A stretch of DNA of 44,656 nt from a virus, in the IMG/VR virus record IMGVR_UViG_3300013126_000062, positions 1 through 44,656 of that record. One strand, written 5' to 3'. The notes below the pieces were generated by a model. It worked only from the letters and a program-made list of their open reading frames with translations, searched no databases and was not told the DNA's origin. Made by a program: the position numbers and the translations under genes. How positions within the stretch are numbered: position 1 is the first letter of the stretch; every line of letters starts with the position of its first letter. This document shows, piece by piece, positions 336-39,096 of this stretch.

Positions 336-355
336 AAAATTATAAGGAGAAATTG

Positions 356-814
356 ATGATCAAACATGTATTTATTTATTTTATGACACTGATGATTATT
401 TTTTATAAACCAAAAGAAGATAAAATTATAAAATATTATATTCCAAATCCTCAATATGAGCTAAAAGCAACTATTTACAACAATCATCCATCTCAATGTT
501 GGGGTGATGGACAAATAACTGCCAGCGGAAAACGTCTTTATGGAAAAAACGTAGATAATCTTAAATATGTTGCTTTATCGAGAGATATGATTAAGCCAAC
601 AAGATATCATAAGCAAAGAGATGGGTATAACCCAAATGCTCCATTTGAATTTGGAGATACTATTGTAGTAAAATTTCCAGAGGGGGAAGAATTGTGGACT
701 GTTCAAGATGCAATGGCAAAAAGACATAAAAAAAGGATTGACTTTCTGGCAAAAAAGAGTTACTTTAAGGTAAAGTCAAATAGCATGATTACGGTTGAAA
801 AATTTGAGGAGTAG
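356..814 (+). CDS. 3D-domain / double-psi beta-barrel-like protein with N-terminal membrane segment
   Basis: A 152-residue protein. ATG 356 is chosen over an in-frame TTG three bases upstream because AAGGAG lies 6 bases before it. Residues 3-16 are hydrophobic (signal anchor or signal peptide). The body shows ATIYNN, ITASGKRL, YVALSRDM, FGDTIVV and TVQDAMAKRHKKRIDFL. This matches the order of the 3D (Asp-Asp-Asp) domain of MltA/RlpA-type double-psi barrels that act on or bind peptidoglycan. A role in wall access or lysis is inferred. It ends in TAG, 5 bases before nadE. Confidence 0.55.
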   Translation: MIKHVFIYFMTLMIIFYKPKEDKIIKYYIPNPQYELKATIYNNHPSQCWGDGQITASGKRLYGKNVDNLKYVALSRDMIKPTRYHKQRDGYNPNAPFEFGDTIVVKFPEGEELWTVQDAMAKRHKKRIDFLAKKSYFKVKSNSMITVEKFEE

Positions 815-819
815 TTAAA

Positions 820-1572
820 ATGGACATGAAGATTGTTTCTGAAAAAATTGTAACTTGGCTTAGGGATACTGCAATTAAAGCCAAGGTCAATGGTTTTGTT
901 GTTGGCGTGTCTGGTGGAGTTGACTCTGCTACTGTAGCAGCTTTGTGTGCCAGAACGGGACTCCCTACAATGCTCGTTTCTATGCCTTGCCAATCAAAGG
1001 ATGAGCATACCATTGTAGCTAAAAATTATATGGAACTTCTTAGGGATAAGTTTGAAAATGTTTGGTTTAAGACAATTGATTTGACAATCACATTTTCCGT
1101 ATTTGCGAATGAAATTCCAACTCTTTCGGATCTTGCAAAAGCAAATGCTAAATCAAGACTTCGAATGGTAACTCTTTATGGTTTTGCTAACACAAACAAT
1201 CTTCTTGTCGTAGGAACTGGAAATAAGGTAGAAGATTTTGGGGTTGGTTTTTTTACAAAGTATGGAGACGGTGGAGTTGATCTTTCTCCAATTGGTGATC
1301 TTTTGAAGAGCGATGTTCGAGAGCTTGCGAGATTTGTTGAGGTTCCTGAACACATTTGCCAAGCAGTCCCTACAGACGGCTTGTGGAATGATGGGAGAAC
1401 GGATGAGGGCCAACTTGGAGCTACTTATGATGAGTTAGAGTGGGCAATGAATCATCAGGCATATTCAGGAGAAACTCTTTCGAAGAGGCAACAAGAGGTT
1501 CTTAAAATTTATAACAAGTGGCACGTAAATAGTCAACACAAAATGAACACACCTCCAATTTGTAGGATTTAA
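820..1572 (+). CDS. nadE: NH3-dependent NAD+ synthetase
   Basis: A 250-residue protein of usual single-domain NadE length (no glutaminase domain). It converts deamido-NAD to NAD+ with ATP and ammonia in the cytosol. The ATP pyrophosphatase P-loop SGGVDSA is at residues 31-37. The family motif GTGNKVEDFGVGFFTKYGDG and the following DLSPIGDLLKSDVRELA segment are intact, as is the C-terminal PTDGLW...RTDEGQLG region. GAGGAG precedes ATG 820. Trp is TGG and the stop TAA. Phage-borne NadE can support NAD supply during infection or offset NAD-depleting defences; which applies here is not visible. Confidence 0.93.
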   Translation: MDMKIVSEKIVTWLRDTAIKAKVNGFVVGVSGGVDSATVAALCARTGLPTMLVSMPCQSKDEHTIVAKNYMELLRDKFENVWFKTIDLTITFSVFANEIPTLSDLAKANAKSRLRMVTLYGFANTNNLLVVGTGNKVEDFGVGFFTKYGDGGVDLSPIGDLLKSDVRELARFVEVPEHICQAVPTDGLWNDGRTDEGQLGATYDELEWAMNHQAYSGETLSKRQQEVLKIYNKWHVNSQHKMNTPPICRI

Positions 1573-1574
1573 AA

Positions 1575-1763
1575 ATGACAAAAGAAAGAATCGAATACTT
1601 TCGGGATTATGTAAAATCATATTCTCATGATGTTGATGAAAAGACATTTATTCTTGATATGCTATATGGAATAGGAATTTCGATAAACCGAGAAAAGTAT
1701 AGCTGGGGTGAGGGTTTTGAAAAGTTTATGCAAGAAAAAATTGAGTCATTGATTAAGGGGTAA
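1575..1763 (+). CDS. Hypothetical protein, 62 aa
   Basis: A short, charged, mainly helical protein with one TGG and a TAA stop, starting 2 bases after nadE and probably translationally coupled to it. No domain is recognised. Confidence 0.6.
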   Translation: MTKERIEYFRDYVKSYSHDVDEKTFILDMLYGIGISINREKYSWGEGFEKFMQEKIESLIKG

Positions 1764-1765
1764 TA

Positions 1766-2071
1766 ATGAAAAGACCAACAAAACCAAGGACGAAAAAGTT
1801 TGTAGATTTGGTATTGTCAGAATATCAATGGAGTAATTTAACTTTTAAAGAACTTGTTGAAAAATTATCATCATTAAAAATCCCTTTTGAAGAATTGTTT
1901 TTCAAGAAAAGTTATGATTATGATGGAAATTCTGATATGGATATTTATAGGAACAGCGTTTCGGAGAGTGATGTTGCTGATTATAATAAAAAGATGGAAC
2001 AATATAAAAAAGATTTAATTGCTTATCATGAATATAAAGCAAAACAACTCAAGGAGGACATGAATGATTAG
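1766..2071 (+). CDS. Hypothetical protein, 101 aa
   Basis: A basic N-terminus (KRPTKPRTKK) is followed by an acidic, helical, Tyr/Lys-rich region. It starts 2 bases after the preceding stop with AAGGGG upstream, and ends in TAG overlapping the start of the ClpP-like gene. No family is recognised. Confidence 0.6.
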   Translation: MKRPTKPRTKKFVDLVLSEYQWSNLTFKELVEKLSSLKIPFEELFFKKSYDYDGNSDMDIYRNSVSESDVADYNKKMEQYKKDLIAYHEYKAKQLKEDMND

Positions 2072-2768
2072 ACAAACAGATTCTTTGATAAAAGAATATA
2101 TTGAATTTTATAACTCAATGGACGAAGAAGAGAAGAAAAAAATTGATCCATTGGATTTTTGAAACAGCATTCTTTCTACCTATAATAATGGAAATCAAAC
2201 AATTTCTTCGATAGCTTCTGAATTGGATTTAGGTGTTGATTTTCTCAATAATAGAATTTATCTTGTTGGAGAAATAAAAGAATACGATGGTATATTTATT
2301 CAACAAAAAATGAGTGCTTTGACAAAAATGATGGAAATAGACTCCAATAATCCCATTCAATTGATTGTAGACTCTGGTGGTGGAGATGTTTATTCTATGT
2401 TTACAATAATCGATTCAATTCAATTATGCGAGAGAAAGGTTTCTACTATTGGATTTGGAAACATAATGTCAGCAGCCTCCCTTATTCTTGCATCAGGAAC
2501 AGGACCAAGATTGCTTGCGCCACATACGTCAATTATGGTACATCAGATGTCTGCTTCGATGGACGGGCCATCATCTCAACTCAAAGCAAACGCTGCACAA
2601 ATTGAACAATTGGAAAATACATGGTTAGAATTATATTCTAAATTTACAGGAAAATCAAAATCTTGGTGGAAGTCAAAAATGGCAAAAGATTTCTTTTTGG
2701 ATGCAAAAACTGCTATTAAATACGGATTAGCAGATGATCTTTTAACAAAGGAGAATTTTTATGCATAA
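2064..2768 (+). CDS. ClpP-like serine protease (recoded, one TGA=Trp)
   Basis: A 234-residue protein. ATG 2064 has AAGGAGG at 2051-2057 and the frame crosses one TGA (2160-2162, codon 33) before joining the ClpP-fold region. Family features are an IYLVGEI strand, the DSGGGDVYSM oxyanion loop, IMSAAS with the nucleophile near Ser139, MVHQ with His near 160, and KDFFLDA with an Asp near 209. Phage ClpP-like proteins act either as prohead/maturation proteases or modify host proteolysis; no capsid gene is in view to decide. The 50-residue N-terminal extension is only visible with TGA=Trp. It overlaps genes on both sides by a few bases. Confidence 0.82.
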
Positions 2769-3219
2769 TCTTTTGAAAGAAGAATTAGTAAATCTAATTG
2801 ATCGAAAAAATTATGTAGAGATTTATAAAATTTTAAGAGAAGAGTTGGGTCTTACAAAAGAAAATGTTGATAGCCTAATTCCAATTTTTGAACATTTCTC
2901 AGAAAATCGTTCAGAAGAAGCAAGTGATTTAATCGAACAAGCCTACGCTGATGGTTGTGAAGAAATGGCCGAATGTATTTTAGATAATGCGATGGCTTAC
3001 CCAAATTATTCTAAAAGAGAAAAAGAAAATTGGTTAAATCATGATCTTGGGCAAGCAAAAGAATATTTTCCAAATGATGAAAACTTTGAAATGTATAAAC
3101 AAGGGTGGGAAGATGGATTTACCACTCTTGAAGAAAATGCAAATTTTGATGTAGAAGATGAAAGTAATTATAATGTATCGAATATGTATAAAGATTGGAG
3201 AAAAAGAAATGGATTATAA
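2761..3219 (+). CDS. Hypothetical acidic protein, 152 aa
   Basis: It starts at ATG 2761 inside the end of the ClpP-like gene, with AAGGAG upstream. Rich in Glu/Asp, it looks all-helical, with no motif I recognise. All Trp codons are TGG. It overlaps the following DUF1599 gene by 11 bases. Confidence 0.65.
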   Translation: MHNLLKEELVNLIDRKNYVEIYKILREELGLTKENVDSLIPIFEHFSENRSEEASDLIEQAYADGCEEMAECILDNAMAYPNYSKREKENWLNHDLGQAKEYFPNDENFEMYKQGWEDGFTTLEENANFDVEDESNYNVSNMYKDWRKRNGL

Positions 3220-3496
3220 TAAATACGATGAACATAAAAAGATATGCCTTGCCTTAAACAAAATATATTGAGAAAAAAATACAAAATATGGAGACTCTTT
3301 TTCCTTAGCGTATAAAAAATATGGAAAGAAAGCGGCATTGATCCAGTTGTTTCATAAATGAAATAGAATAGAGGCATTATTAGCAAACGAAGATTTGGAT
3401 AATAACGAAGAGTCAGTAAAAGATTCTTTGCTTGATTTTGCAAATTATGCAATTATGACCGTAATGGAAATAGAAAAACAAGAAATACCTTTTTAG
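3209..3496 (+). CDS. DUF1599 / nucleotide modification associated domain 1 protein (recoded)
   Basis: A 95-residue protein with two in-frame TGA codons (codon 21 at 3269, and one before NRIEALL). Read as Trp they give YWEKNTKYGDSF and FHKWNRIEALL, followed by EESVKDSLLDFANYAIM. This is the signature order of DUF1599 (PF07659), a small helical family linked by context to phage nucleotide or DNA modification, with unknown biochemistry. It ends in TAG. Confidence 0.75.
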
Positions 3497-3504
3497 GAGA
3501 TGAT

Positions 3505-4077
3505 ATGTCAGAGATTAAAATAACAGAACAACCAAAAAGGCCAAAATATTTGATCAAAGAAGATGTTAAAAATATAAAAATTAAAATGACAGAAGACGAA
3601 AAAAAAGTTTATACAATAGCAGATCATAATGCTAAATTTGTGGGATTAGAAAAATCAAACATTCCAGAAATTATGGAAAAAACATTTAAAATAACCACAT
3701 TAGCTCAGGTTTTTGAACCTATAGATAATGCTATTATTTGTGTTGACGAAAATGGATATAAAATAAACACCAACAATGGTGATTACGATTGTGCTTCATG
3801 TGATCAATTCGATTCAAATCCAACAGAAAGACATCCTCATGGTCATTGTAAATTTGCAATAGAAAAATGGATTGAAAAATTTGGATCTCTTGATACAAGA
3901 CCAGAAGGATTAGATGAACTTCAAAGTAAATTAAGAAAAATCGGAGAAGAAAAACAGGTAGAACTAACTCCAGAAGAAGTTTTGGCCTTAACAAAAGATC
4001 TACCAAATCAATTTACTGAAGATGTAAAAAAACAAATTGGAGAGTTAGATGAAGATAATGGAGACTCCGTATCATAA
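3505..4077 (+). CDS. Hypothetical protein with Cys/His cluster, 190 aa
   Basis: ATG 3505 follows AGGAG. The centre holds CASCDQF, then HPHGHC about 15 residues later, which could bind a metal. The C-terminal third is acidic and helical. The gene overlaps the downstream nuclease by 20 bases, which suggests co-expression. No family is assigned. Confidence 0.65.
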   Translation: MSEIKITEQPKRPKYLIKEDVKNIKIKMTEDEKKVYTIADHNAKFVGLEKSNIPEIMEKTFKITTLAQVFEPIDNAIICVDENGYKINTNNGDYDCASCDQFDSNPTERHPHGHCKFAIEKWIEKFGSLDTRPEGLDELQSKLRKIGEEKQVELTPEEVLALTKDLPNQFTEDVKKQIGELDEDNGDSVS

Positions 4078-9507: not shown

Positions 9508-11379
9508 ATGGACAGACAAACTATCCAAAATATAAATTACACATCATTAAATGATTACAATACGGCAAAAAACGAAATAGAGAAATTATTAAAACAGTAT
9601 TATCCTGATAATTATAAGAATTATATATCAACAGGAGGAGGGGCTCCTGTTGTTTCTATGTTTGCTTTTATTTCTGAAATTCTAAGTTTTACTCAAGGAC
9701 AATATTTTAATCAACTATTTCCACAGACAGTTACGGATTATCAGTCGGCAATAAATTTGGCCCAATGAAGAGGACTTAGAGACATAGGAGCTTCGCTTCC
9801 TTGGGTGGCCGTGAAAGCCACCATAACCGCTCCAGCAAACGCAGGCACCGTAAGTAGAGATACACTACCAAAAATAATTCCAGGGGCTATATTGTCATCT
9901 AGGGATTCAAATATTCCAGACTTTACTTTAGCGAGTGAAATTGATTTTTCAAAAATTGATGAATCTGAATGAACAAAATATTTTAATGCATCAGGATCTT
10001 TAACAAGGGTAGAAATTCCTGCAATTGGATACGCTACATCATATATTGTAAATAATTATAATACAACAATTTCTACACCAACAAATGAATTTGAACCATT
10101 CTACGAAATTTCATTACCACAACCAAATGTTCAGCAAATAGTCAGTGTTACGGATGACTCAGGTGATATTTATTACGAGGTTGATTATTTGGCACAAGAT
10201 AACATTTTTGATCATGTTTTAAATGAAAATAGTCAAAATGATAATATTCCATATTTACTATTTGACAAAAAGGTTCCAAGAAGATTTATAAAGAAATCGT
10301 ATGTAGGAACCGATAATCAAATTTATACAAAAATAGTATTTGGAAATACAGACGAAGCATCATATAATGAATATCTATATTCGATTAATCCAAATGATTT
10401 AGTTCTTCCTGCTCAATTATCAGGAATTTCGGCACAGGGAATTTCTATACAAAAATTAGCTAATAAAGAATATGATCCAAATAATTTATTGGTAGCTGAT
10501 TCTTTGGGAATTGCGCCTTCTGTTGGATCTATTGTTTCTGTAGAGTATATTTCGGGAGGTGGAAATATAAAAGTAGAAGCTGGTAGGCTAAATAGAATAA
10601 GAAATGTAACATGATCATGAAAAGACAATACTTATAGTTCAGATATTATGTCTTCTCTCGTTGTTAATAACGATAATCAAAGCTCGGGCGGAAGGGATAA
10701 GTTAACAATAGAAGAAATAAAACATTTGTTGATGCAAAGATCCGAAACGCAAAAAAGAGCAGTTACTCCTCAAGATTATATTTCTATAATACAATCAATG
10801 CCAAGTTATCTTGGAAGACCAGATAAAATTTATGTAAGTAGAGCTAATGAAGCGATAGATCCATTTAAATTCTTTATATATATGCTTTCTATTGATAAAA
10901 ATGGATACTATACAGACCCTACAACAAATAACGCTTTTATTCATAACTTAAAAATATATTTAAAAAAATATAAATCACTAAATGATCTTATTATACTTAA
11001 AAAAGGTAATGTTGCAAATATATTGATTAATTTTAATATTATCATAAACAAATCATATAAAGTAGAAGAAGTTTCTTTTAATACGATTCAATACACTAAA
11101 AAGTTCTTTGCAAAAGAAAATTGAGATTTTGGAAAGCATATTTATATTGATGAATTATCCGAATATATAAGACAAAATGTAAACGGAATTGTATCTATTG
11201 GTATGTTGAATATAAAAACTCCAATACAAGATAGTTCCGAATATTCGATGAATTCTTTTTATAATGGACTAACTTATGATTCAAAAAGAAGAATGTATTT
11301 TGTTCCATCAAATACTATCATAGAAGTTAAATATCCAAATAGGGATATTATAATCAACGCAGACATAGCAAAGGGATAA
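9508..11379 (+). CDS. BaseplateJ/gp6-like baseplate wedge protein (recoded)
   Basis: A 623-residue protein crossing several TGA codons (AQW, SEW, TWSW, ENW). Features are N-terminal FISEILSFTQGQYFNQLFPQ, a central beta domain with DDSGDIYYEVDYL, and the hallmark LTIEEIKHLL...KRAVTPQDYISIIQSMP, the conserved J/gp6 segment. It would form the wedge ring that contacts gp25 and the tail sheath. Under the standard code it is split into several ORFs. Confidence 0.85.
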
Positions 11380-13437: not shown

Positions 13438-15239
13438 TTCCATCATCATTTACTACGGAAGAAATATCGTCTATAAGCGGCGATTTTGTCTCAATTACAG
13501 GAAGAATCTCTGTAACAAATTCTACTCCTTACACCCTGCTGTCCTCGTTGGGCGGCTACACCGACCAGTGGCTTTTTTATGGTACAACCGCAAGTGACGA
13601 AGTTCATGATTTTGTTTTTACTTATGAAAAACAATGGCTCTTGGGCAGAATTCCATTTAATTTACCAATTTTCCTGTATTTACCAAATACTCCGCAAGAG
13701 ACTTATTTTTGTTCATTTGGTGATATAGAAAGGTCTTCGGGATCTGCACATAAATTATTTTGTTATTCAAAAATGTCAAATGATGATAAGGAATCAATTG
13801 CATATTATAATCCAAGACCAAATGATGTGATAAGACTAAAGGCTATGGATTCTTTAAATTTATATGATCAAACGGCTACGACACTATCTTGAGATTGCAC
13901 AACAAATAATGCAGAGTTTTTAAGAGATTATTGAGATGACCCGCTATCGGCATACAAAATAGAAGGGTTAAATTGATCGCAAAATAGTATAATAAACAAT
14001 AATGAATCTTGTAGTGCATGATTTGAGCAATCATATGGATCTAGATTTTTACAGCCTACGGTTTGAGACTCGGTTTGGGTAAAGTTTAAATCATCTGGAC
14101 CATGCGAAATTAGAATAACGTCACCAAGAGAGCATGAAAATAATACTCTTACGTTAAGATTTTTTGTAAATGATGTACAACAAGTAACTCCAAACTGAGT
14201 AGCCGAATCTTCGTTAACATCTTACAATCCATCATTTTTACAATTTAGACATGATCTTAGAAATTCTTTGTATGCGGTAATTGATCAGAGTGTGAGATCT
14301 GTTGTAGCAGATCAAATGTCAAAATACTTCAGACTCTATAATGAAAATGATGAAAATTCATTTAAAACTTTATTGTTTACAAATAATGAAAGAGTAGAAA
14401 GAATAGACGATTATATTAAACAATTAGAATATAAGGTAGAACAAGCATTAAATGTGATAGGAGATGATCAAATACAATCGCTATATAAATCAATTTATGC
14501 TACACTTCAAGATTATGACTCTAAATTAAAAGACTTTATCACAAATACGTTAGAAAGATCAGTCCAAAACTATGAATTATCTGAACAATTGTTGGCACAA
14601 CTTGATGCGAAAGCAAAAGAAGAAAGTTTAGTACAATACAATTATACAATAAAAAGCATAGATATATCGAGAGTTCAGATTACATTACATACTCAAAGGA
14701 CAAATGAGGCATGAGATATTTCTCAATATTTAAATAATCAAAACGGACAATTAATGATATCTTTACCTATTATATCTAAAATAACAGGATTTGATAATAT
14801 AGATTCTTTTGTTCCATGATACATTTATGTCTGACCAAAATCAAAAACTTTGTCAAATTATAGAGTTCCGTCAAATAGGAATATTCAGTTCAGTATTGAT
14901 AACGATCTAACGGAAATAATATGAGGTAATTTATATGATAAAAACGGAAACTCATATAAAATTATAAACAGAAATGGAGATAATTGGATTTTAGACAAAA
15001 ATATTGATCAAGAAGTGGTTGGAACAGATTTGGTTTTCTATCCAAATTATTTTGAACCACAAATTATTAAACTAGACATTTCTTGGTTGCATAATTATAT
15101 TCCAAAAAATATTCCACTAGGAACAACATGAAGGCCACCAACTCAAATAATAGAAGAGCCTGTTGAAATAACACAAGAAAATATATTTGAAACAGTAATT
15201 CGACCAAATCAAAAAGAAAATAACAAGGAGATTTTCTAG
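13416..15239 (+). CDS. Large tail/baseplate structural protein, 607 aa (recoded)
   Basis: Read through about fourteen TGA codons to a TAG at 15237. The N-terminal 160 residues are beta-rich (ISGDFVSITGRISVTN). Residues 285-415 are helical and coiled-coil-like (VERIDDYIKQLEYKVEQAL). The C-terminal part includes WYIYVWPKSKTLS and a Pro-rich tail. The arrangement suggests a fibre-like or connector protein. No family is recognised. Confidence 0.65.
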
Positions 15240-17368
15240 TGGATCAGATTTTAGAAGAGGTTCGGGCAGAAGAGCTTTATCATATAACAACGCTTGACAA
15301 CGCAATAAATATAATAAGAAAAAATGTTTTTAAATTAAGTCCATGAATGAATCGAACGGAGCGGAATGATATGCAACAAGATAAGTATTTCTTTGGATCA
15401 TTTGCAAGACATCCAGTTGATATATTTGGAAGAAGTAGTCAGGTTATATTTGTTTTGGATCAAAGAAAACTCAAACAAAAATATAAATTTATTCAATTTA
15501 CTTATCAAAGAATCGAAGATAAGCCACCAATGATTCATGAATTTGAGGAAAAATTATTAAGCAATTTTCCATATATAAAAAATTTTAATTCATACATCAA
15601 AGAAATTTATGTAAATCAAAAAAGATATGATACCGATTTTGAAGAGAAAATAATGGGTGATATTTATAGGATAGAAAATTTAGCAAAACAAAATAATATA
15701 GAAATTTACTTCACATATGAAGAGCATAGGAGAACTGAAAACAACAGATCTTTAAGAAAATATATGGTAAAAAACAAAACAGAGCCATACGAATTTTCGG
15801 GTCTAAAATATGGAAAATATAAATCAAGAGGATCTGAATACGAAAAAAATAACTTAATGAATTTTAAAAATCAATTGAATATGATTTATAATGTAATGTT
15901 TTGAGATGAAAATAAAATTATACCAAAGATAGATAATTATTTTAGTCTCTTATCATATAAATCTGATGAATTTTATTGATACTTAGCTCACGAAGTTCTG
16001 AATAACAGAAAATATGATCCACAAATCAGAGTTTTGCTTCCAAAAATAGTTAAAATGTTTGAAAAAGCAAACGTAAAGACAGTAGAACAATTTAAAATAT
16101 ACTTAATGCAGCATAATGGCATATGATACGAGAAGGTAAGTGATTTAAAAAAATCATTAAAAGAGAATCGAGAAAATCCTTTAATAATAGCGTTTTATAA
16201 TGACATAACTGGATATCATCATGGTCAAACTGATGGTACTTTATATGCATATGATCCAAATTCAATGGATAAAAATATATACGGACATTTGACATGAGCT
16301 TTATACGAAGATAAGGTTTATATCCATTATATTGAAGTTAAAGAGGAATTCAGAAGAAACGGTATAGCTACAAGATTATTTGATCAACTTAAAAACAAAG
16401 AATTTCCTGACAAAAAGATAATTCACACAAACTCAACTTCTGATGGTGGAAAGTGAATAAGTTCATTAAAAGAAAGTGTAAACGATAGAGTTTTATATCA
16501 CGCGACAAGCGAAGCTATGTTATATAATATATTAAGAACAAATTCTGTGATACTAAGCATGGAGTCTAATTTGCTTTCATCTTCTGATAATATTCATAAA
16601 TATCCATACTATTTATCAACAGCGAGATCTACTCAGTCTGACTTTTTTAGAGCTTTCTTTAATTGACCAAAAATAGAATTTGATAAAGATTTGGTTGAAA
16701 AAAAATATAAAATCATACCATTTAATTTTTATGCTGATGGAGATTATTATGAAAATAAATTAAGCTCTTTCTTAAATAGGCAAAAAAAGAAGGAATCAGA
16801 AGATAGAATTTTATCAAAAGATCCGGAGATAAAAGATATATCGAAGTATATAAAAGCAGTTCATATCCTTTATGTAGGGAAAACAGATAAAATATTAAAT
16901 CTGTGTAAAAAATTAAATATTAAGGTAATTTTATATAAAAATTTAAAAGATTTTCGTATATTAAAAAATGGAGAAGAATGAGATGGAATTATAGATGGTG
17001 GAATTAACAAAAAAAGAGAAAGTTACGGAGAGAAAATAGATCCAATGCTAATAAAAAACTTTGTTATAGGCTACCTTTTAATTATGTCTAGTTCAAAAGA
17101 ACAATTCTATCAAAAATGTGAAGAAAATAGGCTAGACGGGAATTCTTTTAATTTATATGATTTCTTAGATTTCGTTGAATATCAGTTAAGTTTAAGAGAC
17201 TTCTTTTATGGATTTGAAAAATATAAAAAAATGTTTTATAGCATTATTAAGAAAATAGGAAGATATTCTGATAGGAAAAGAATGATTGATATATTTAATA
17301 ATAAGATAAAAAGATGACTTCCTCATCCGCATCAACCTACTTTATCAGATCAACATGAGGAGGTATAA
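15239..17368 (+). CDS. Polyvalent protein: ART-like domain, GNAT acetyltransferase, second ART-like domain (recoded)
   Basis: A 709-residue protein with GTG start 15239 overlapping the previous TAG. I count nine TGA and no TGG. Residues 1-175 contain LYHITTLDNAINII, FFGSFARHPVD, VIFVLDQRKL and HEFEEKLLS. Residues 417-600 repeat the plan: VLYHATSEAMLYNIL, YYLSTARSTQSD and ESEDRILSKDPEI, then KYIKAVHIL. H, S/AR and E positions fit the H-[S/Y]-E triad of ADP-ribosyltransferase-like folds. Between them, residues 310-400 form a GNAT domain (GHLTWALYEDK, VYIHYIEVKEEFRRNGIATRLF). Its position in the tail operon suggests a virion protein injected like T4 Alt, modifying host proteins. ART assignment is inference; GNAT is clearer. 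Confidence 0.7.
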
Positions 17369-29409: not shown

Positions 29410-29973
29410 TTAATTACTCTCCTTATCTAGTTGATCAAGTCTTTTTGCTATAGAAACAAAGACATTCAGTTTTTTTTGATCAATATAAATTATTTCTTTA
29501 TTTTTTGCTTGTGCATATTTAATTGTATGATAAGTTCCTCCTGAACAATCTCCGTTCCATACTGCTAAAACAAGATTTGCTCGATTTACCATCCACTCGT
29601 CTCTTTGCAATAGCTTGAAATTTGCGTGAGAGCCTCTACAAACGACGATTGCCTCGTTACACGACTCCAAGATAGTCTTATGATATTCTTGGCTTAAAAT
29701 CGGCCAATTGCTACCATGATTTTCATAAGGTAATGCTGCAATGAGGGAAATTTTATCTGGATGTTTTTCTTTTAGAAGCTTGACGATTGTTGCAAAAATA
29801 ATATCAACTCCAAGTGCCATCCCTGAGATGCACTCAATTTTTTCATGTTCATTTAATTGTTTGATCAATTGAATACCTAGCCATCTATAAATATAAGTGG
29901 CTACTGGATTCTGTTTATATCCACCAATTTTATTTGGCCTATGTCCTGTTACCATTATTTTATATGGTTCCAT
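29410..29973 (-). CDS. SLOG-superfamily (DUF1273/YspA-like) protein, 187 aa
   Basis: MVTGHRPNKIGGY, CISGMALGVDIIFA, LIAALPYENHG and LAVWNGDCSGGT follow the Rossmannoid SLOG fold of the YpsA/YspA type, predicted to bind nucleotide-derived ligands. Such genes are common in phages and near NAD/ADP-ribose enzymes. All Trp codons are TGG. It precedes the small gene and NUDIX in the leftward operon. Confidence 0.78.
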   Translation of the reverse strand: MEPYKIMVTGHRPNKIGGYKQNPVATYIYRWLGIQLIKQLNEHEKIECISGMALGVDIIFATIVKLLKEKHPDKISLIAALPYENHGSNWPILSQEYHKTILESCNEAIVVCRGSHANFKLLQRDEWMVNRANLVLAVWNGDCSGGTYHTIKYAQAKNKEIIYIDQKKLNVFVSIAKRLDQLDKESN

Positions 29974-32450: not shown

Positions 32451-35400
32451 ATGAGTTGAAAGATTTTAACAATTTCTGATGTTCATATTCGAGCCTTAGA
32501 AAGGCACAAAGAATATAGACAAGTTTTTACAAAGTTACTGGCTGAGGCAGAACAACTTCAGCCAGATTTTATATTTAATTTGGGAGATTTATTTCATAAT
32601 AAGTTACAACTATCTCCTGAAGCTATTATTTTAGTTAGATGATTCTATAAAAAGTTAGTAAAGATAGCTCCTGTTTATACAATTGTTGGTAATCATGATA
32701 TGAATGTAACCAACAGTTTAAGGCCAGATTCTATTTCTGCAACTATTTCTGATATTGGCAATAGTTTTATCCTTAAACATTCTTCATTCCAAGAAATCTC
32801 CAAACCAACAGATTCAAAAAAAGGTGTTGCAGTAGGACACTTTTCTTGATTTGAACCGCAATCCGAATGACCTAAAAACATACCAAATGAATTTAAAGAT
32901 CATATTTGTATAGCCCTATATCATGGAGCGGTTGATAAATATGAAACAGATTCTGGATTCTTCGAAAATAGTCCAATAAAATATTCTGATTGGTTTACTG
33001 AATATGATGCTGTCATGTGCGGAGATATTCATAAACAACAAAAGATGACAGACAATTGTTGTATGGTGGGCAATTTAATTCAGCAAAATTTCGGCGAAAA
33101 TGTAGATAAAGGATACTTGGTTTGGATATTTAAGGATAAAAAGAATGTAAGAATCGATAGAAAACTTTTGTCCAACGATTATAATTATTTAAATGTATTT
33201 ATCCCATTTTCAGATTTAGATAAAGCAAAAGAAACAATCAAAAAAGAATTGGATCAACTATATGTAACAAAGAATTCTAATATTAAGTTAATGATATCCA
33301 CAACAAGAGTCGTAGATGTTGCATTAAAAGAAGATTTGGCAAAATATGTAATTGAAAACTATGGCATAACTCCTATCATAGAGGAATCTTTTAGATTAAA
33401 TACTACACAAGTAGAAGGAAAGAAATCTAAAGAATTAAGGCCAAAAGAATTCTCGGATTTTTCTTATCAAAATGAATTGATAACAAATTATTTAACAAAT
33501 GAATTTAGTATTCCAAAAGATATGACAATTGATGAAATTTGTGATATCAACAGAGAAATAAATGATGAATTGGGACTGAAACCTAATTTTGGATCTAAAA
33601 CATGGAATATTATAGACTTTAAGTTCTCAAATCTATTCCAATATGGAGAAGATATATCTCTTGATTTTAATGAACTATCTGGAATTATTGGATTGTTTGG
33701 CGATAATGCGGCAGGAAAATCAAATCTATTAAATGCCTTATCTTTTGTTATCTTTGGAGATACAATTACTAATGTTTCTAACATAGAGATAATAAGAGAT
33801 GGTCAAAAAGAAGCATTTGGAGAAGTTAATATTGAAAGAGGTGGAAAATATTTTAGAATAACAAGAAGTTTAGTAAGACAAAAAGATAAGGCTAAACACG
33901 AAGTTAAGTTTTGTGTAAAAGAAGGATCTGAATGAGATTCTTTAAATGATGAATCAGTAACAAAAACAAATCAAAGAATTGCTGAACAGCTTGGAACATT
34001 TGAAAACTTTTGCTTAACAACATTATCTACACAAGATGATTTTGCTAAATTCATTAAAACAGGCAATACTACAAGAAAAGATATTGTCATGAATAATCTT
34101 GGAATAGGAATTTTTGCAAATTTATTTGAGTATTCAAAAGATAAACTAAAGGAAATAAACGCAGTAATTAAAAACTATGAAGATTCAGATAAGTTACTTG
34201 ATTCGTTATCTGTTTATAAAACAAAAAGTATAGAAATTGAATCAAGTAACGCAACAGAGTCTATTAAATTAACAAAACTAAAAGATGTTGTAAGTAAGAT
34301 AGAAGAAAAAATAACAATAGAAGAGAGTAAAATAAAACCAATTACTTGTCTTATTATAGACGAAAGCAAAATAACAAAAGAACTGTTTGAAATTGATACG
34401 GAAAATGTTAAGTGGTCAAAATTAAAAGAAACTAACGATATCGAAATTGAAGAAACTCAATTATCTATAACAAAAACAAGAAAAGATATAGAAGAATTCC
34501 AAACAAAAATAAGCAATCAGTTAAAGGTTGTGTATTCAGATATTGGTAAATTAGAAGAATCTATTAAAAGACATAACAATATAACAAGTAAATTTGGCGA
34601 TATTAACTGTAAACAAGATGATTGTATTTTATTACAATTATACAAAAAAGATTGTTGTGATATTGATATCGTAAATAAAGATCTTGATAAGTTAAAAGCT
34701 GGAGAGGTTGTTTTATTACAAAAACAATTGGAATTAAAAGAGATAACTAAATTGCATGATAAGTTAGATCAATTACAAAGAAAAAGTGTAGAGATTGATG
34801 CTAAACTTCAAAAGTTTACTTATGAAAAAGAGAATAAAAACAGATTATTAAAAGAGTTTAATGATAACAAAAAAGTAATAGATCAAAATAAAATAATTCA
34901 AGACGGCATAGATAAGCTTAAATTAAATAGATCAACTGGAACAAACGCTGTAGCCGAATCTACTGCATTAATAAATGCTAACAAGAAACTCATTAAAGAT
35001 TATGAAACGATTATTACTGAAATATCGAGAAAGATTGATTATGTTCATGAAATGAAAAGAAAAGCAAATGTATTAGTTGTTTATAATAACATAATGAATC
35101 CAAACTCATTACCAAATAACGTATTAAAGAATTATATCAGTATTCTTGAGGATGAAGTAAATAAGATTTTAACACTAACTACTGGATTAAAGACTAAGTT
35201 TTATTTGGATACGAGAGAAGGAAAGAAAACATCTGAGCTTGTGATTGAGTTCAAGAATTTAAATGGTGATACCTGACATTCTATTTCAACTTGTTCTGGT
35301 GCAGAGAAAATGTTATTATCCTTAGCTATTCGAGTTGCTTTAATCTTAATAACAACGTCTCATAAATCAAATATACTTATCGTAGACGAAGGATTTAGTG

Positions 35401-35564
35401 CAATAGATTCAAAGAAATTACCAGATATAAAGAACGTGTTTCATATATTAAAATCAATGTTCAATTCAATTATTATTATATCACATTTAGACACCATAAA
35501 AGATATACCAGATAAAACTCTTTATGTAATAAACGAGGATGGAAAATCGAGTCTGGTATTATAA
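32451..35564 (+). CDS. Fused Mre11-Rad50 (SbcD-SbcC; T4 gp47-gp46) protein (recoded)
   Basis: One 1037-residue frame with six TGA codons, the first at codon 3, plus four TGG. Mre11 part: SDVHIR (Asp10), LGDLFH (45-48), GNHD (80-83), CGDIHK (His194). A linker (about 290-385) leads to the Rad50 part: Walker A GDNAAGKS (about 417), long coiled coils, a Cys pair CKQDDC near 720 at the hook position, ABC signature CSGAEKMLLSLA near 947 and Walker B ILIVDEG near 975. Elsewhere these are two proteins. It would resect DNA ends in phage recombination-dependent replication. The hook is not canonical CxxC. AAGGA precedes ATG. A terminator follows. Confidence 0.88.
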
Positions 35565-35866: not shown

Positions 35867-35895
35867 AATATAGGAAAGCAGATTGAGACTTGCAA
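35867..35895 (-). promoter_or_regulatory. Leftward promoter sharing its -35 box
   Basis: On the minus strand: TTGCAA (35895-35890), 17-base spacer, TATATT (35872-35867) followed by GG. The -35 hexamer is the same DNA as that of the rightward promoter. Confidence 0.6.
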
Positions 35896-35918
35896 GCTTG
35901 CTCTGCATTCCCTATATT
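35890..35918 (+). promoter_or_regulatory. Rightward promoter sharing the palindromic -35 box
   Basis: TTGCAA (35890-35895), 17-base spacer, TATATT followed by GG (35913-35920). TTGCAA is its own reverse complement, so it serves both directions. Confidence 0.6.
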
Positions 35919-35945
35919 GGTTCCAAGTCAAAGGAGAAGGCAGAA

Positions 35946-37106
35946 ATGAACACCAAGACTTTCAAGACAATTGATTTGAAGGATGCGCTGGTCAAGATTC
36001 AGAGTCTTCAAAAGAAGGCTGAAAAGTTAGGAATCATTCCTCCAGAAATTGTTGATACAGTTGAGGGTATTCATAAAGAACTTGATGAAGAAACTGGCGT
36101 TGAAATCTCTTATAAATATTGGCAAGTTACCATAAATTTTCATCCAATCAAGCTTTCTGGATGGGAGTTTCTTGCCGAAGTTCATCATGGAGAAAACGGC
36201 AACGGCAATAGTTTCAAGAAGATCAATTTTGATGTTGAAATTCCTGAAAAGTATTATAATACTCACACAAATCTTTGTGAACATTGTGGGCATAATAGGT
36301 ATCGTGTTTTTACTTACATTGTTCGCAACATCGAAACTAATGAATTCAAGCAGGTTGGTTCTGCTTGTCTCAAAGATTTTTGTGGTCATTCTTTCAACTT
36401 CATCAATACTTATCTGAAGGCTGTTGATGAGAATTTTGATGAAGGATTTGATGTTCATCATTCTGCCCCTTCTGTTTGTCGTGATCAATTTCTTGAATTG
36501 GTTGCTTATACAGCAAGAGTTCATGGATTTGTTACTGGCAAAGAATATTATGAAAAGAATGGATTTGCGGGCGGAACAGGTCGTCAGACTTGGAATCTAA
36601 TCTTTTCAGATAAGAAAGGTGTGAATAAGGAAAAGGTCAATATTTCCGATGATGATAAGCTTCTTGCAAAGGAAGCAGTTGAAATTATTGAAAATCTCAA
36701 GGATGTTGAGCGAAACAATTTTCAACAAAGTTTGTATGCCGCCGGATCTGTTGGTTATCTTGATCATGATCAAGCTGGTGTTGTTGCTTATTCAATCAAG
36801 ATGGCAATTCAGGCAAGGGAAGATAAGAATTCCGTAGATGTTTCCAATTCTCAATTTATTGGGAAGGTCGGAGACAAGGGAGTTCATTTTAATGTTTTAG
36901 TGATCGGTAAGCAGAATATGGGAGAATATTATTTAATTAAGATGGCGACCAAGGAAGGAAATTCTTTGGTTTGGTTTGGTTCTTTTGGATCTTTTGCTGA
37001 CAATCTTGAGCCGGGAAACTGGTATAAGATTAAGGGAAATATCATGAAGCATAACAATTTCCGAGGAATCAATTCAACTCAAATCAATCGAGTGAAAGAA
37101 ATTTAA
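35946..37106 (+). CDS. Zinc-binding and OB-fold-like protein, 386 aa
   Basis: ATG 35946 follows AAAGGAG and is preferred to in-frame upstream alternatives that overlap the promoter. Residues about 112-150 contain CEHCGHNRYR, then VGSACLKDFCGH, a four-Cys treble-clef-like site known from large phage and plasmid proteins. The C-terminal 80 residues (GVHFNVLVIGKQ...YKIKGNIMKH) look like an OB fold. Nucleic-acid binding is inferred. Eight or so Trp, none TGA. Confidence 0.65.
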   Translation: MNTKTFKTIDLKDALVKIQSLQKKAEKLGIIPPEIVDTVEGIHKELDEETGVEISYKYWQVTINFHPIKLSGWEFLAEVHHGENGNGNSFKKINFDVEIPEKYYNTHTNLCEHCGHNRYRVFTYIVRNIETNEFKQVGSACLKDFCGHSFNFINTYLKAVDENFDEGFDVHHSAPSVCRDQFLELVAYTARVHGFVTGKEYYEKNGFAGGTGRQTWNLIFSDKKGVNKEKVNISDDDKLLAKEAVEIIENLKDVERNNFQQSLYAAGSVGYLDHDQAGVVAYSIKMAIQAREDKNSVDVSNSQFIGKVGDKGVHFNVLVIGKQNMGEYYLIKMATKEGNSLVWFGSFGSFADNLEPGNWYKIKGNIMKHNNFRGINSTQINRVKEI

Positions 37107-37107
37107 A

Positions 37108-37785
37108 ATGATTTTCGTAACTGGTGATACTCATATTCCAATTGATATTGGAAAACTTTCTTCAAAGAAATGGGAGCAAGGAAATTCATTAACCAAGAAT
37201 GATTTTCTTATTATTCTCGGAGACTTTGGCCTTCTGTGGAATAATGCTCCCGATAAAGAAGAAATTTACTGGAAGAACTGGCTTGACAATAAGCCTTGGA
37301 CAACTCTTTTCATTTCAGGAAATCACGAAAATCATGATCGAATTGCTCAACTTGAAGAAATTCAAATGTTTGGAAATATTGTTGGCAAAGTTTCTGATTC
37401 AATTTTTCATCTTCAAACAGGAAGAATTTATACAATCGATGGCAAAGAGTTCTTTTGTTTTGGTGGAGCAGAGTCAACTGACAAGCACCTAAGAATTGAG
37501 GGAAAAAATTGGTGGAGTCAAGAAACTGCAACAATGGAAGAAATTAATAGAGCTTTGGATTCTCTTGAAAACAAATCTTTTGTTGATATTATTTTAACAC
37601 ACACACTTCCAAATGATCTCGTTCCTTTTTGGAGGAAAACAAAGTGTCCAACATCAAGCTTCCTTCAGCATATTTTTGAAACAATGAATTGGAATAATTG
37701 GTTTTGTGGACATTTTCATATGAATGAAAAATTTGAGATTGTCGGAGTCGAGATTCTTTATAATAATATAAAGGAGATTAAATAA
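37108..37785 (+). CDS. Calcineurin-like metallophosphoesterase, 225 aa
   Basis: The motifs GDTHIP, ILGDFGLLW, ISGNHENHD, LTHTLP and CGHFHMN occur in standard order with all metal ligands. Substrate unknown; phage members can act on cyclic or modified nucleotides, RNA or proteins. It follows the previous gene by 1 base and overlaps the HD gene by TAATG. All Trp codons are TGG. Confidence 0.88.
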   Translation: MIFVTGDTHIPIDIGKLSSKKWEQGNSLTKNDFLIILGDFGLLWNNAPDKEEIYWKNWLDNKPWTTLFISGNHENHDRIAQLEEIQMFGNIVGKVSDSIFHLQTGRIYTIDGKEFFCFGGAESTDKHLRIEGKNWWSQETATMEEINRALDSLENKSFVDIILTHTLPNDLVPFWRKTKCPTSSFLQHIFETMNWNNWFCGHFHMNEKFEIVGVEILYNNIKEIK

Positions 37786-38285
37786 TGGATGCCAAGACTT
37801 TTGCTTTTATTCACCATCAGGGGCAAAACTATGGAGATAATTCTTTTATGAGTCATCTTCATCAAGTAAAAATTATTGTTGAAAAATATTTAAGTGATAA
37901 TTCTATAATTCAAGCAGCATATCTTCATGATATTCTTGAGGACACAAATTGTACCTATATGGATCTTTATAATGTTTTTGGAGAAAAAACAGCAAATGTC
38001 ATTTGGCTTGTAACAGATCCCAAGGGAGAAAATCGAAAAGAAAGAAAGAAGAAGCTTTATCAAAAGATTGAAGAAGCAAAACTTGTTTTTGATGGCAATG
38101 TTTTTAATGGTGTTTATTTGATTAAGGCAGCAGATCGTCTTGTTAATCTACAAAATTGCAAGAATGGATCAAAGCATATGATTTATATGTACAAACAAGA
38201 GCATGAAGAATTTCAGAAACATTTTTATTGTATTTTGTATCATGACATTTGGAATGAAATGGATAAAATTTTGATTGATGTATAG
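37785..38285 (+). CDS. SpoT/MESH1-like HD-domain phosphohydrolase, 166 aa
   Basis: FMSHLHQV (His26), YLHDILEDT (48-54), VTDPKGENRKERKK and LIKAADRLVNL follow the (p)ppGpp hydrolase HD domain of RelA/SpoT and MESH1. The length matches stand-alone hydrolases without a synthetase domain. It would lower (p)ppGpp and counter host stringent response; inferred from family. Ends in TAG before a terminator. Confidence 0.82.
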   Translation: MDAKTFAFIHHQGQNYGDNSFMSHLHQVKIIVEKYLSDNSIIQAAYLHDILEDTNCTYMDLYNVFGEKTANVIWLVTDPKGENRKERKKKLYQKIEEAKLVFDGNVFNGVYLIKAADRLVNLQNCKNGSKHMIYMYKQEHEEFQKHFYCILYHDIWNEMDKILIDV

Positions 38286-38312
38286 GTTAAATTTTCATTA
38301 AATAACAAATTT

Positions 38313-38335
38313 AAAGGGAGCAAATGCTCCCTTTT
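38313..38335 (+). terminator. Rho-independent terminator after the HD gene
   Basis: AAAGGGAGC-AAAT-GCTCCCTTT stem-loop with a TTTT tail, 30 bases after the stop of the HD gene. Confidence 0.85.
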
Positions 38336-38337
38336 CA

Positions 38338-38347
38338 ATATATAATT
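38338..38347 (+). promoter_or_regulatory. Candidate late promoter before PhoH
   Basis: ATATATAATT, identical to the ten bases before the baseplate operon at 8939. It sits just after the terminator, 39 bases before the PhoH start, with no TTG-N17-TATATTG match in this gap. Confidence 0.35.
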
Positions 38348-38385
38348 ATACCTACTCCAAGGCTTTAAAAACTTAGGAGAACAAT

Positions 38386-39096
38386 ATGTGTAGTTTAAAG
38401 AAAAAAGAAAAAACAAAAAAGGAAACGACACACCAAATGCATGATCTGGAATTGGTTCAATCAATTAATTCAACCGATTTCAGAAATGAGACTCAGAAAA
38501 AGTTACATTCTTCAATTATGCAAAACTATATAACATTTGCATACGGAAGTGCTGGTTCTGGAAAGAGTTATGTAGCATTATGATCCTCTTTAGAATTAGT
38601 TTTGAAAGGTGATTCCAAATTTAACAAGATTTATTTGGCAAAACCTTATGTTACAGCGGATGAAGATATTGGATTCTTACCAGGAGGAGTTGAAGAAAAG
38701 TTAGATCCATTCTTAATGAGTTTCTACTTAAATCTTGAAAAAATCATTGGCCCTCAACAAGTTTTGAAGTTGAAAAGAAACAGAATAATCGAAATCGTAC
38801 CAATTGCGTATATCAGGGGCGTTACTTTTTCAAATTGTATTGTTATATTGGATGAAGCGCAAAATGCTACACCGTCACAAATTAAAATGTTTTTAACAAG
38901 ATTGGGTGATGATTGTAAGTTTATTATAGCAGGAGACTTAAAACAATCAGATCTTGAAAAAGAATCTGGTTTAGGTGACGCAATCAATAGATTCAATGGT
39001 ATTAAAGGGGTAGGTCTTGTAAAATTTACCAAAGAAGATGTTGTTCGTCATCACTTAGTTAGAACAATTTTGGAGAGATATGGAGACGAAGATTAA
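38386..39096 (+). CDS. phoH: PhoH-like ATPase (recoded, one TGA)
   Basis: A 236-residue protein with AGGAG before ATG 38386. Walker A AYGSAGSGKS (52-61), then TGA at 38581 giving YVALWSSLEL, KIYLAKPYVTADEDIGFLPG, Walker B VILDEAQN (Asp156), and FIIAGDLKQSD sensor. The family is an RNA-helicase-like P-loop ATPase frequent in phages. Overlaps the next gene by 17 bases. Confidence 0.9.

What the first reader, a model, noticed from the sequence alone, without database searches (positions are those of the whole stretch)
15239..17368. Polyvalent tail-operon protein: two ART-like domains flanking a GNAT
The N- and C-terminal thirds repeat the same pattern (LYH-x-T, S-x-AR, LD..KL/KYKI, E-x-E/E-x-ED, YI-x-x-IHI-like) around a clear GNAT acetyltransferase. 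This suggests an injected multi-effector, with NAD-dependent and acetyl-CoA-dependent activities in one 709-residue protein.
Basis: partly seen in the sequence, partly recalled or inferred. Interest (0 to 1): 0.75.

Follow-up and report, generated by a model that had tools for sequence, protein, structure and literature searches.

The report
Phage fusion protein: two ADP-ribosyltransferases, one acetyltransferase
A phage that reads TGA as tryptophan encodes, inside its baseplate gene cluster, one 709-residue protein with two copies of an uncharacterised DarT-like ADP-ribosyltransferase domain on either side of an acetyltransferase, most likely a multi-enzyme effector carried in the virion and injected into the bacterial host, which is a new variant of the known 'polyvalent' phage proteins.

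Summary
Window 15239-17368 is one 709-aa ORF, but only if TGA is read as Trp (9 TGA, 0 TGG). Residues 1-210 and 406-630 are homologous (0/500 shuffles). Residues ~313-412 are a GNAT.

Both repeats belong to a phage family for which Pfam, PHROGs and PADLOC gave no convincing model. Its invariant or near-invariant residues (H-x-T, S-x-x-R, E-x-E) are kept in both window copies. AlphaFold2/Foldseek of the N copy puts DarT at ranks 1-5 (best E 1.5e-4). The family profile's only PDB sequence hit is E. coli DarT1, weakly (E=0.28). It is not DarT itself: catalytic R51, Y71 and the long loop are not conserved.

Injection is inferred, not shown. Supporting it: the gene sits in the baseplate operon (a context reported for T4-Alt-type genes), the GNAT's homologues lie in large proteins beside head or terminase genes, and family members in other phages share a transferable N-terminal leader with unrelated neighbours, like T4 capsid-targeting peptides. 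ART+GNAT polyvalent proteins are already described. New here are the ART family, its doubling and the leader evidence.

The parts
15225..15230 (+). Shine-Dalgarno AAGGAG, 8 bases before the GTG start
   Evidence: sequence
15239..17368 (+). whole ORF, 709 aa, GTG start, TAA stop, 9 in-frame TGA read as Trp
15239..15259 (+). residues 1-7 (M)DQILEE: L-x-E in register with the leader end of homologues; upstream targeting part missing
   Evidence: function inferred
15263..15733 (+). ART1, DarT-fold ADP-ribosyltransferase-like domain, residues 9-165
   Evidence: AlphaFold2 and Foldseek, family alignment
15281..15289 (+). ART1 H15-I16-T17, counterpart of DarT H13-I14-T15 (NAD+ contact)
   Evidence: DarT residues from PMC9967889
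15398..15409 (+). ART1 S54-F-A-R57
15539..15547 (+). ART1 E101-F-E103; E103 aligns with DarT catalytic Glu
15830..16123 (+). helical module after ART1, residues 198-295, shared with single-domain homologues
   Evidence: low-confidence model
16175..16474 (+). GNAT acetyltransferase domain, residues about 313-412, with acetyl-CoA motif RRNGIA
16484..16978 (+). ART2, DarT-fold ADP-ribosyltransferase-like domain, residues 416-580
16499..16507 (+). ART2 H421-A-T423
16616..16627 (+). ART2 S460-T-A-R463
16793..16801 (+). ART2 E519-S-E521
17042..17317 (+). helical module after ART2, residues 602-693
   Evidence: low-confidence model
9508..11379 (+). context: baseplate wedge protein gene of the same operon
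820..1572 (+). context: NAD synthase gene (possible NAD+ supply, inferred)
   Evidence: PF02540 E=8.5e-53

Best explanation
The ORF encodes a polyvalent phage effector: two DarT-fold ADP-ribosyltransferase units (each an ART domain plus a helical module) joined through a GNAT acetyltransferase. It is made late, with the baseplate proteins, carried in the virion and delivered with the DNA. In the new host the ART units would use NAD+ to attach ADP-ribose to host macromolecules (protein or nucleic acid; the substrate cannot be predicted). His15/421 and Thr17/423 would hold NAD+, and Glu103/521 of the E-x-E motif would be catalytic. The GNAT would acetylate a protein. Shown here: ORF, repeat, fold affinity, conserved catalytic set, GNAT, operon position. 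Inferred: late expression, virion carriage, injection, enzymatic activity and targets.
For: Internal repeat 0/500 shuffles. Foldseek: the five best PDB matches of the N copy are DarT, E=1.5e-4 for 7omw; the C copy + GNAT model hits DarT and GNATs with probability 1.00. The family profile's only PDB sequence hit is E. coli DarT1, E=0.28; hhalign against DarT aligns H-x-T and the catalytic Glu in order over 141 columns, P=0.0012 but probability about 20%. H, T, S, R, E, E kept in both copies. GNAT above Pfam cut-off. Baseplate operon with overlapping start and stop. GNAT homologues sit in large proteins beside head and terminase genes, one of them with NUDIX, ART-PolyVal and GNAT. Family members elsewhere share a leader with unrelated neighbours. 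ART+GNAT polyvalent proteins and Alt-baseplate association are published (PMC5512222). TGA/TGG use groups the gene with the structural block.
Against: No virion proteomics, no activity data. Sequence support for DarT kinship is weak outside H-x-T; the C copy's DarT match has E=6.7e-3 only. The window protein lacks most of the leader seen in homologues. No prohead protease of T4 type was identified in the window. Baseplate location could reflect timing only. The helical modules have no predicted role. Substrate unknown.
Confidence: 0.6

Rival explanations
1. The ART and GNAT enzymes are real but not injected: they are produced inside the infected cell and act there late in infection, as T4 ModA and ModB act after their own synthesis; the baseplate-operon position only gives timing.
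For: Homologues in Dickeya, Salmonella Sen-NF and contig L010 lack the leader and lie beside a DNA ligase gene, and the Vibrio K566 homologue follows an RNA ligase gene, not structural genes. The window protein has no full leader.
Against: The gene is wedged between tail genes with fused start and stop; its GNAT relatives sit in large proteins next to head or terminase genes; leaders are shared by unrelated genes in several related phages.
Confidence: 0.25
2. The protein is a processed polyprotein: three enzymes are packaged and separated by the prohead protease at L-x-E sites before each module (ILEE, SLKE, SLKE).
For: L-x-E precedes all three modules. A 1659-aa homologue in L036 repeats K-S-L-L-K-E before each of three ART copies and before other modules. 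T4 gp21 removes N-terminal leaders at such sites (PMC9026906).
Against: The SLKE before ART2 lies in the last helix of the GNAT as aligned with homologues. Eight [LI]-x-E triplets occur in the protein, so three near domain borders is weak. No prohead protease was identified in the window.
Confidence: 0.08
3. The ART domains are degenerate and have a structural or binding role in the baseplate.
For: The gene lies among baseplate and tail genes; the N copy has K105 and Q75 where the family has Arg and Gly.
Against: All six residues of the conserved catalytic set are kept in both copies of a fast-diverging protein; related phage immuto has no counterpart in its baseplate operon.
Confidence: 0.07

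Closest known systems
Polyvalent proteins with ART and GNAT (Iyer et al. 2017, PMC5512222); example found here: Tunturiibacter phage Tunturi_5 gp273
   Same: several unrelated enzymatic domains in one phage protein, ART beside GNAT, ART repeated, gene among structural genes; the GNAT of Tunturi_5 is homologous to the window's
   Different: published polyvalent ARTs have an H-Y-D active site (Tox-ART-HYD2 clade, PF18760); here the ART is a DarT-fold family with H, S/R and E-x-E, and the protein is smaller and has no LPD domain detected
DarT, toxin of DarTG (PF14487)
   Same: ART fold by Foldseek; YHxT NAD+-contact motif, YW and catalytic Glu in the same order
   Different: no PF14487 hit; no counterpart of R51 or Y71 conserved; stretch between the conserved Arg and Glu about half as long; no DarG beside it; found in phages, often tandem
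T4 Alt, head-packaged injected ART
   Same: works like it if the injection reading holds; Alt-type genes are associated with baseplate genes (PMC5512222) and Alt loses a 7-residue N-terminal propeptide (PMC9026906)
   Different: Alt is of the R-S-E clade; no sequence relation found; no GNAT
Uncharacterised single-domain phage proteins, e.g. Pseudomonas phage Lu11_0202, Dickeya phage JA33_137 and JA33_138, Alishewanella phage Slicko01 cluster
   Same: same ART + helical module, same conserved residues
   Different: one unit per gene, no GNAT; several have a leader that the window protein lacks

Membership tests
ART superfamily | split beta-sheet ART fold | tested here: met
   AlphaFold2 core with high pLDDT; PDB ranks 1-5 are DarT; C copy DarT probability 1.00
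ART superfamily | active-site triad of one of the clades (H-H-h, H-Y-[EDQ], R-S-E) | tested here: inconclusive
   His in strand 1 and Glu in E-x-E are invariant, but the middle position is Ser with Arg three residues on, not a conserved Tyr
ART superfamily | NAD+-dependent ADP-ribosyl transfer | not testable with these tools
   needs biochemistry
DarT (PF14487) | match to the curated family model | tested here: not met
   none of 22 family members matches it up to E=10
DarT (PF14487) | H13-x-T15 NAD+ motif and catalytic E160 | tested here: met
   aligned by hhalign, with low probability
DarT (PF14487) | catalytic R51 and Y71 | tested here: not met
   no conserved residue at these places in 36 sequences (DarT residues from PMC9967889)
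DarT (PF14487) | partner antitoxin with macro domain in the operon | tested here: not met
   neighbouring genes are tail genes
GNAT acetyltransferase | curated model and acetyl-CoA motif [QR]-x-x-G-x-[GA] | tested here: met
   PF00583 above cut-off; RRNGIA; RibT best PDB match
Polyvalent proteins | two or more unrelated enzymatic domains in one phage protein | tested here: met
   ART + GNAT + ART
Polyvalent proteins | characteristic ART-PolyVal (PF18760) or LPD domains | tested here: not met
   no such Pfam hit in the protein
Polyvalent proteins | virion carriage and delivery into the host | not testable with these tools
   context only
T4-type head-packaged proteins | N-terminal capsid-targeting sequence of about 10 residues ending at an [LI]-x-E cleavage site | tested here: inconclusive
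   homologues have such leaders, shared with unrelated neighbours; the window protein keeps only MDQILEE

The most novel reading that the evidence does not exclude
The two domains represent an undescribed, widespread family of capsid-packaged DarT-fold transferases, often in tandem or clustered copies behind transferable capsid-targeting leaders. Phages would thus use, as an injected weapon against host nucleic acids or proteins, a fold that hosts use against phage DNA; in this phage two such units are fused around a GNAT.
Probability: 0.35. Interest if true: 0.7.

Novelty: new variant of a known kind. Interest (0 to 1): 0.5.

Why it matters
It adds an ART family that has no model in the profile libraries searched to the set of candidate injected phage effectors, with a defined catalytic set to mutate and simple predictions (virion presence, NAD+-dependent labelling). 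The shared leaders on clustered ARTs and unrelated neighbours offer a sequence handle for finding head-packaged effectors in other large phages. It also shows that such genes are missed by standard gene callers when TGA is recoded.

Tried and rejected
Code 15 (TAG=Q) does not open the frame; code 4 does. Scans of viral contigs with the whole protein and with the baseplate wedge protein found nothing; two broad family alignments were too divergent for the pattern search. phmmer of the whole protein against PDB found nothing credible. PHROGs, Pfam and PADLOC gave no ART family for the homologues beyond a weak Tox-ART-HYD1 hit, E=0.016. A tree could not place either window copy (long end branches, no supported group), so internal duplication versus fusion of two paralogues stays open. 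The processed-polyprotein reading is kept only as a weak rival because the second SLKE falls in the GNAT's last helix. The T4 capsid-targeting peptide could not be checked letter by letter in the paper library. Papers on virion proteomics of Agrobacterium phage Atu_ph07, a fold-level relative, were listed but not read, because the phage had no clear sequence match.

Full report
What is there. The window is a 44,656-base virus record of about 27-33% G+C. The ORF 15239-17368 is interrupted by nine TGA codons in table 11; it is not opened by TAG=Q and is open with TGA=W. All predicted genes examined end in TAA or TAG. Of five TGA positions in the baseplate wedge protein one falls on Trp in the immuto homologue, the others on M, N, Y and a gap, so Trp is the likeliest meaning but is not proven by that. 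TGA use is block-wise: genes 4049-35564 hold 115 TGA and 36 TGG, the flanking genes 3 and 32 (counts, Fisher p=8e-14). The finding's gene has 9 TGA and no TGG and so belongs with the structural block. This agrees with late expression but does not prove it.

Repeat and domains. Residues 1-210 align with 406-630 at score 111 (shuffles 47 +/- 8, maximum 91, 0/500). tblastn finds the repeat unit as separate proteins of about 190-390 aa in Alishewanella, Vibrio, Salmonella, Pseudomonas, Dickeya, Salicola and Microcystis phages, several as tandem genes. More were found in viral contigs and in one contig of a Spirochaetaceae MAG. These proteins have no convincing Pfam, PHROG or PADLOC family. In a 36-sequence alignment the conserved residues are H15 (36/36), T17 (33/36), S54 and R57 (35/36 each), E101 and E103 (36/36), and R105 (35/36; Lys in the window's N copy). 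Both copies in the window keep H, T, S, R, E, E. Most homologues continue into a helical segment that aligns with residues 198-295 of the window protein, so the repeated unit is ART + helical module.

Fold. AlphaFold2 of the N copy with 22 sequences gives pLDDT of about 85-97 in much of residues 11-160 (weaker around 31-50, 61-70 and 91-100) and weak helices after that. The five best PDB matches by Foldseek are all DarT (7omw, 7omx, 7omy, 7omv, 7yk3; best E=1.5e-4). The model of GNAT + C copy hits RibT and DarT with probability 1.00, at E=3e-3 and 7e-3. Independently, the family profile's only PDB sequence hit up to E=10 is E. coli DarT1, at E=0.28, over the H-x-T motif. Against a DarT set collected with PF14487, hhalign gives a 141-column alignment that pairs YHxT with the DarT YHIT, S-x-x-R with CPRS, DYW with YW, and the second Glu of E-x-E with DarT's catalytic Glu; P=0.0012, probability only about 20%. 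DarT contacts NAD+ through H13, I14, T15 and N19 and needs R51 and E160 (PMC9967889). The N copy reads H-I-T-T-L-D-N at that place. R51 and Y71 have no conserved counterpart, and the stretch between the conserved Arg and Glu is about half as long. So this is a relative and not DarT.

GNAT. PF00583 passes its cut-off at residues 342-385. The nearest phage homologues of this GNAT lie inside very large reading frames: Tunturi_5 gp273 (1489 aa: NUDIX, three ART-PolyVal stretches, GNAT; directly after a minor head protein gene) and Rctr197k_045 (next to a terminase). Iyer et al. 2017 (PMC5512222) describe GNATs beside ARTs in polyvalent proteins. The architecture is thus a known kind, carried out here with another ART family.

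Setting. Upstream are a baseplate wedge gene (PHROG E=1e-7; 28.8% identity over 96% to Flavobacterium phage immuto) and, by synteny, a baseplate assembly gene. The immuto operon has no counterpart of the finding's gene at that place. Start and stop are fused to the neighbours (TAG/GTG overlap; AGGAGG before the next ATG). T4-Alt-type ARTs are also associated with baseplate genes and are packaged in heads (PMC5512222).

Leader evidence. In Alishewanella phage Slicko01, six genes between 86525 and 91558 share an N-terminal leader of the type MKI[DE]xLYxxxLxE: four members of this ART family, a different ART (PF18760, E=2e-11) and a protein without a Pfam match; a seventh neighbour (85888-86523) is similar more loosely. 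In an ORF list of the whole genome no other gene matched the leader pattern. In contig L024 five neighbouring genes share a leader of the type MKYIKIYEQFLNE, and in L016 three share MKLLxExWRxY. The patterns were chosen after seeing the sequences, so this is descriptive, not a test with a null. A leader shared by unrelated domains fits T4 capsid-targeting sequences, which are about 10 residues, carry the protease site at their end and suffice for packaging (PMC9026906). The window protein keeps only MDQILEE with the L-x-E in register. So the leader argument supports packaging of the family, and only weakly that of this protein.

Verdict. Injection remains the best reading, by context. A survey of viral NAD+ systems reports ARTs in 30% of myoviruses and many contexts suggesting head packaging (PMC9503650). 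I could not check whether this exact family is one of the 16 families listed there, since its supplement was not available.

Noticed in passing
window 820-1572: NAD synthase (PF02540, E=8.5e-53) in a phage; the phage NAD+ enzymes listed in PMC9503650 are NadV, NadM and NadR, not this one. It could supply NAD+ for the ARTs or counter NAD+ depletion.
   Followed up: partly
window 4049-35564 versus 353-4077 and 35883-39096: TGA is used as a sense codon mainly in one block of genes (115 TGA to 36 TGG) and hardly in the flanking genes (3 to 32); no tRNA found in the window.
   Followed up: partly
L036 1719-6695: 1659-aa reading frame on a 312-kb contig with three copies of the ART-like domain and DUF4116, each module preceded by a repeated K-S-L-L-K-E linker; possible processed polyprotein.
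   Followed up: partly
L002 973-6643 (Slicko01 85888-91558): Cluster of predicted ARTs of two families plus other genes sharing one N-terminal leader; the same phage has a macro domain gene and nicotinate phosphoribosyltransferase.
   Followed up: partly
window 32451-35564: One 1037-aa reading frame with a metallophosphoesterase (SbcD/Mre11-like) part at the N-terminus and SbcC after it, an apparent fusion.
   Followed up: no
window 2019-2768: ClpP-type protease (PF00574, E=1.6e-33), also matching phage head maturation protease families.
   Followed up: no
window 29410-29973, minus strand: Match to a phage GTP-binding domain family, on the strand opposite to nearly all other genes.
   Followed up: no
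window 37785-38285: By eye an HD-type protein resembling a small (p)ppGpp hydrolase; not tested.
   Followed up: no
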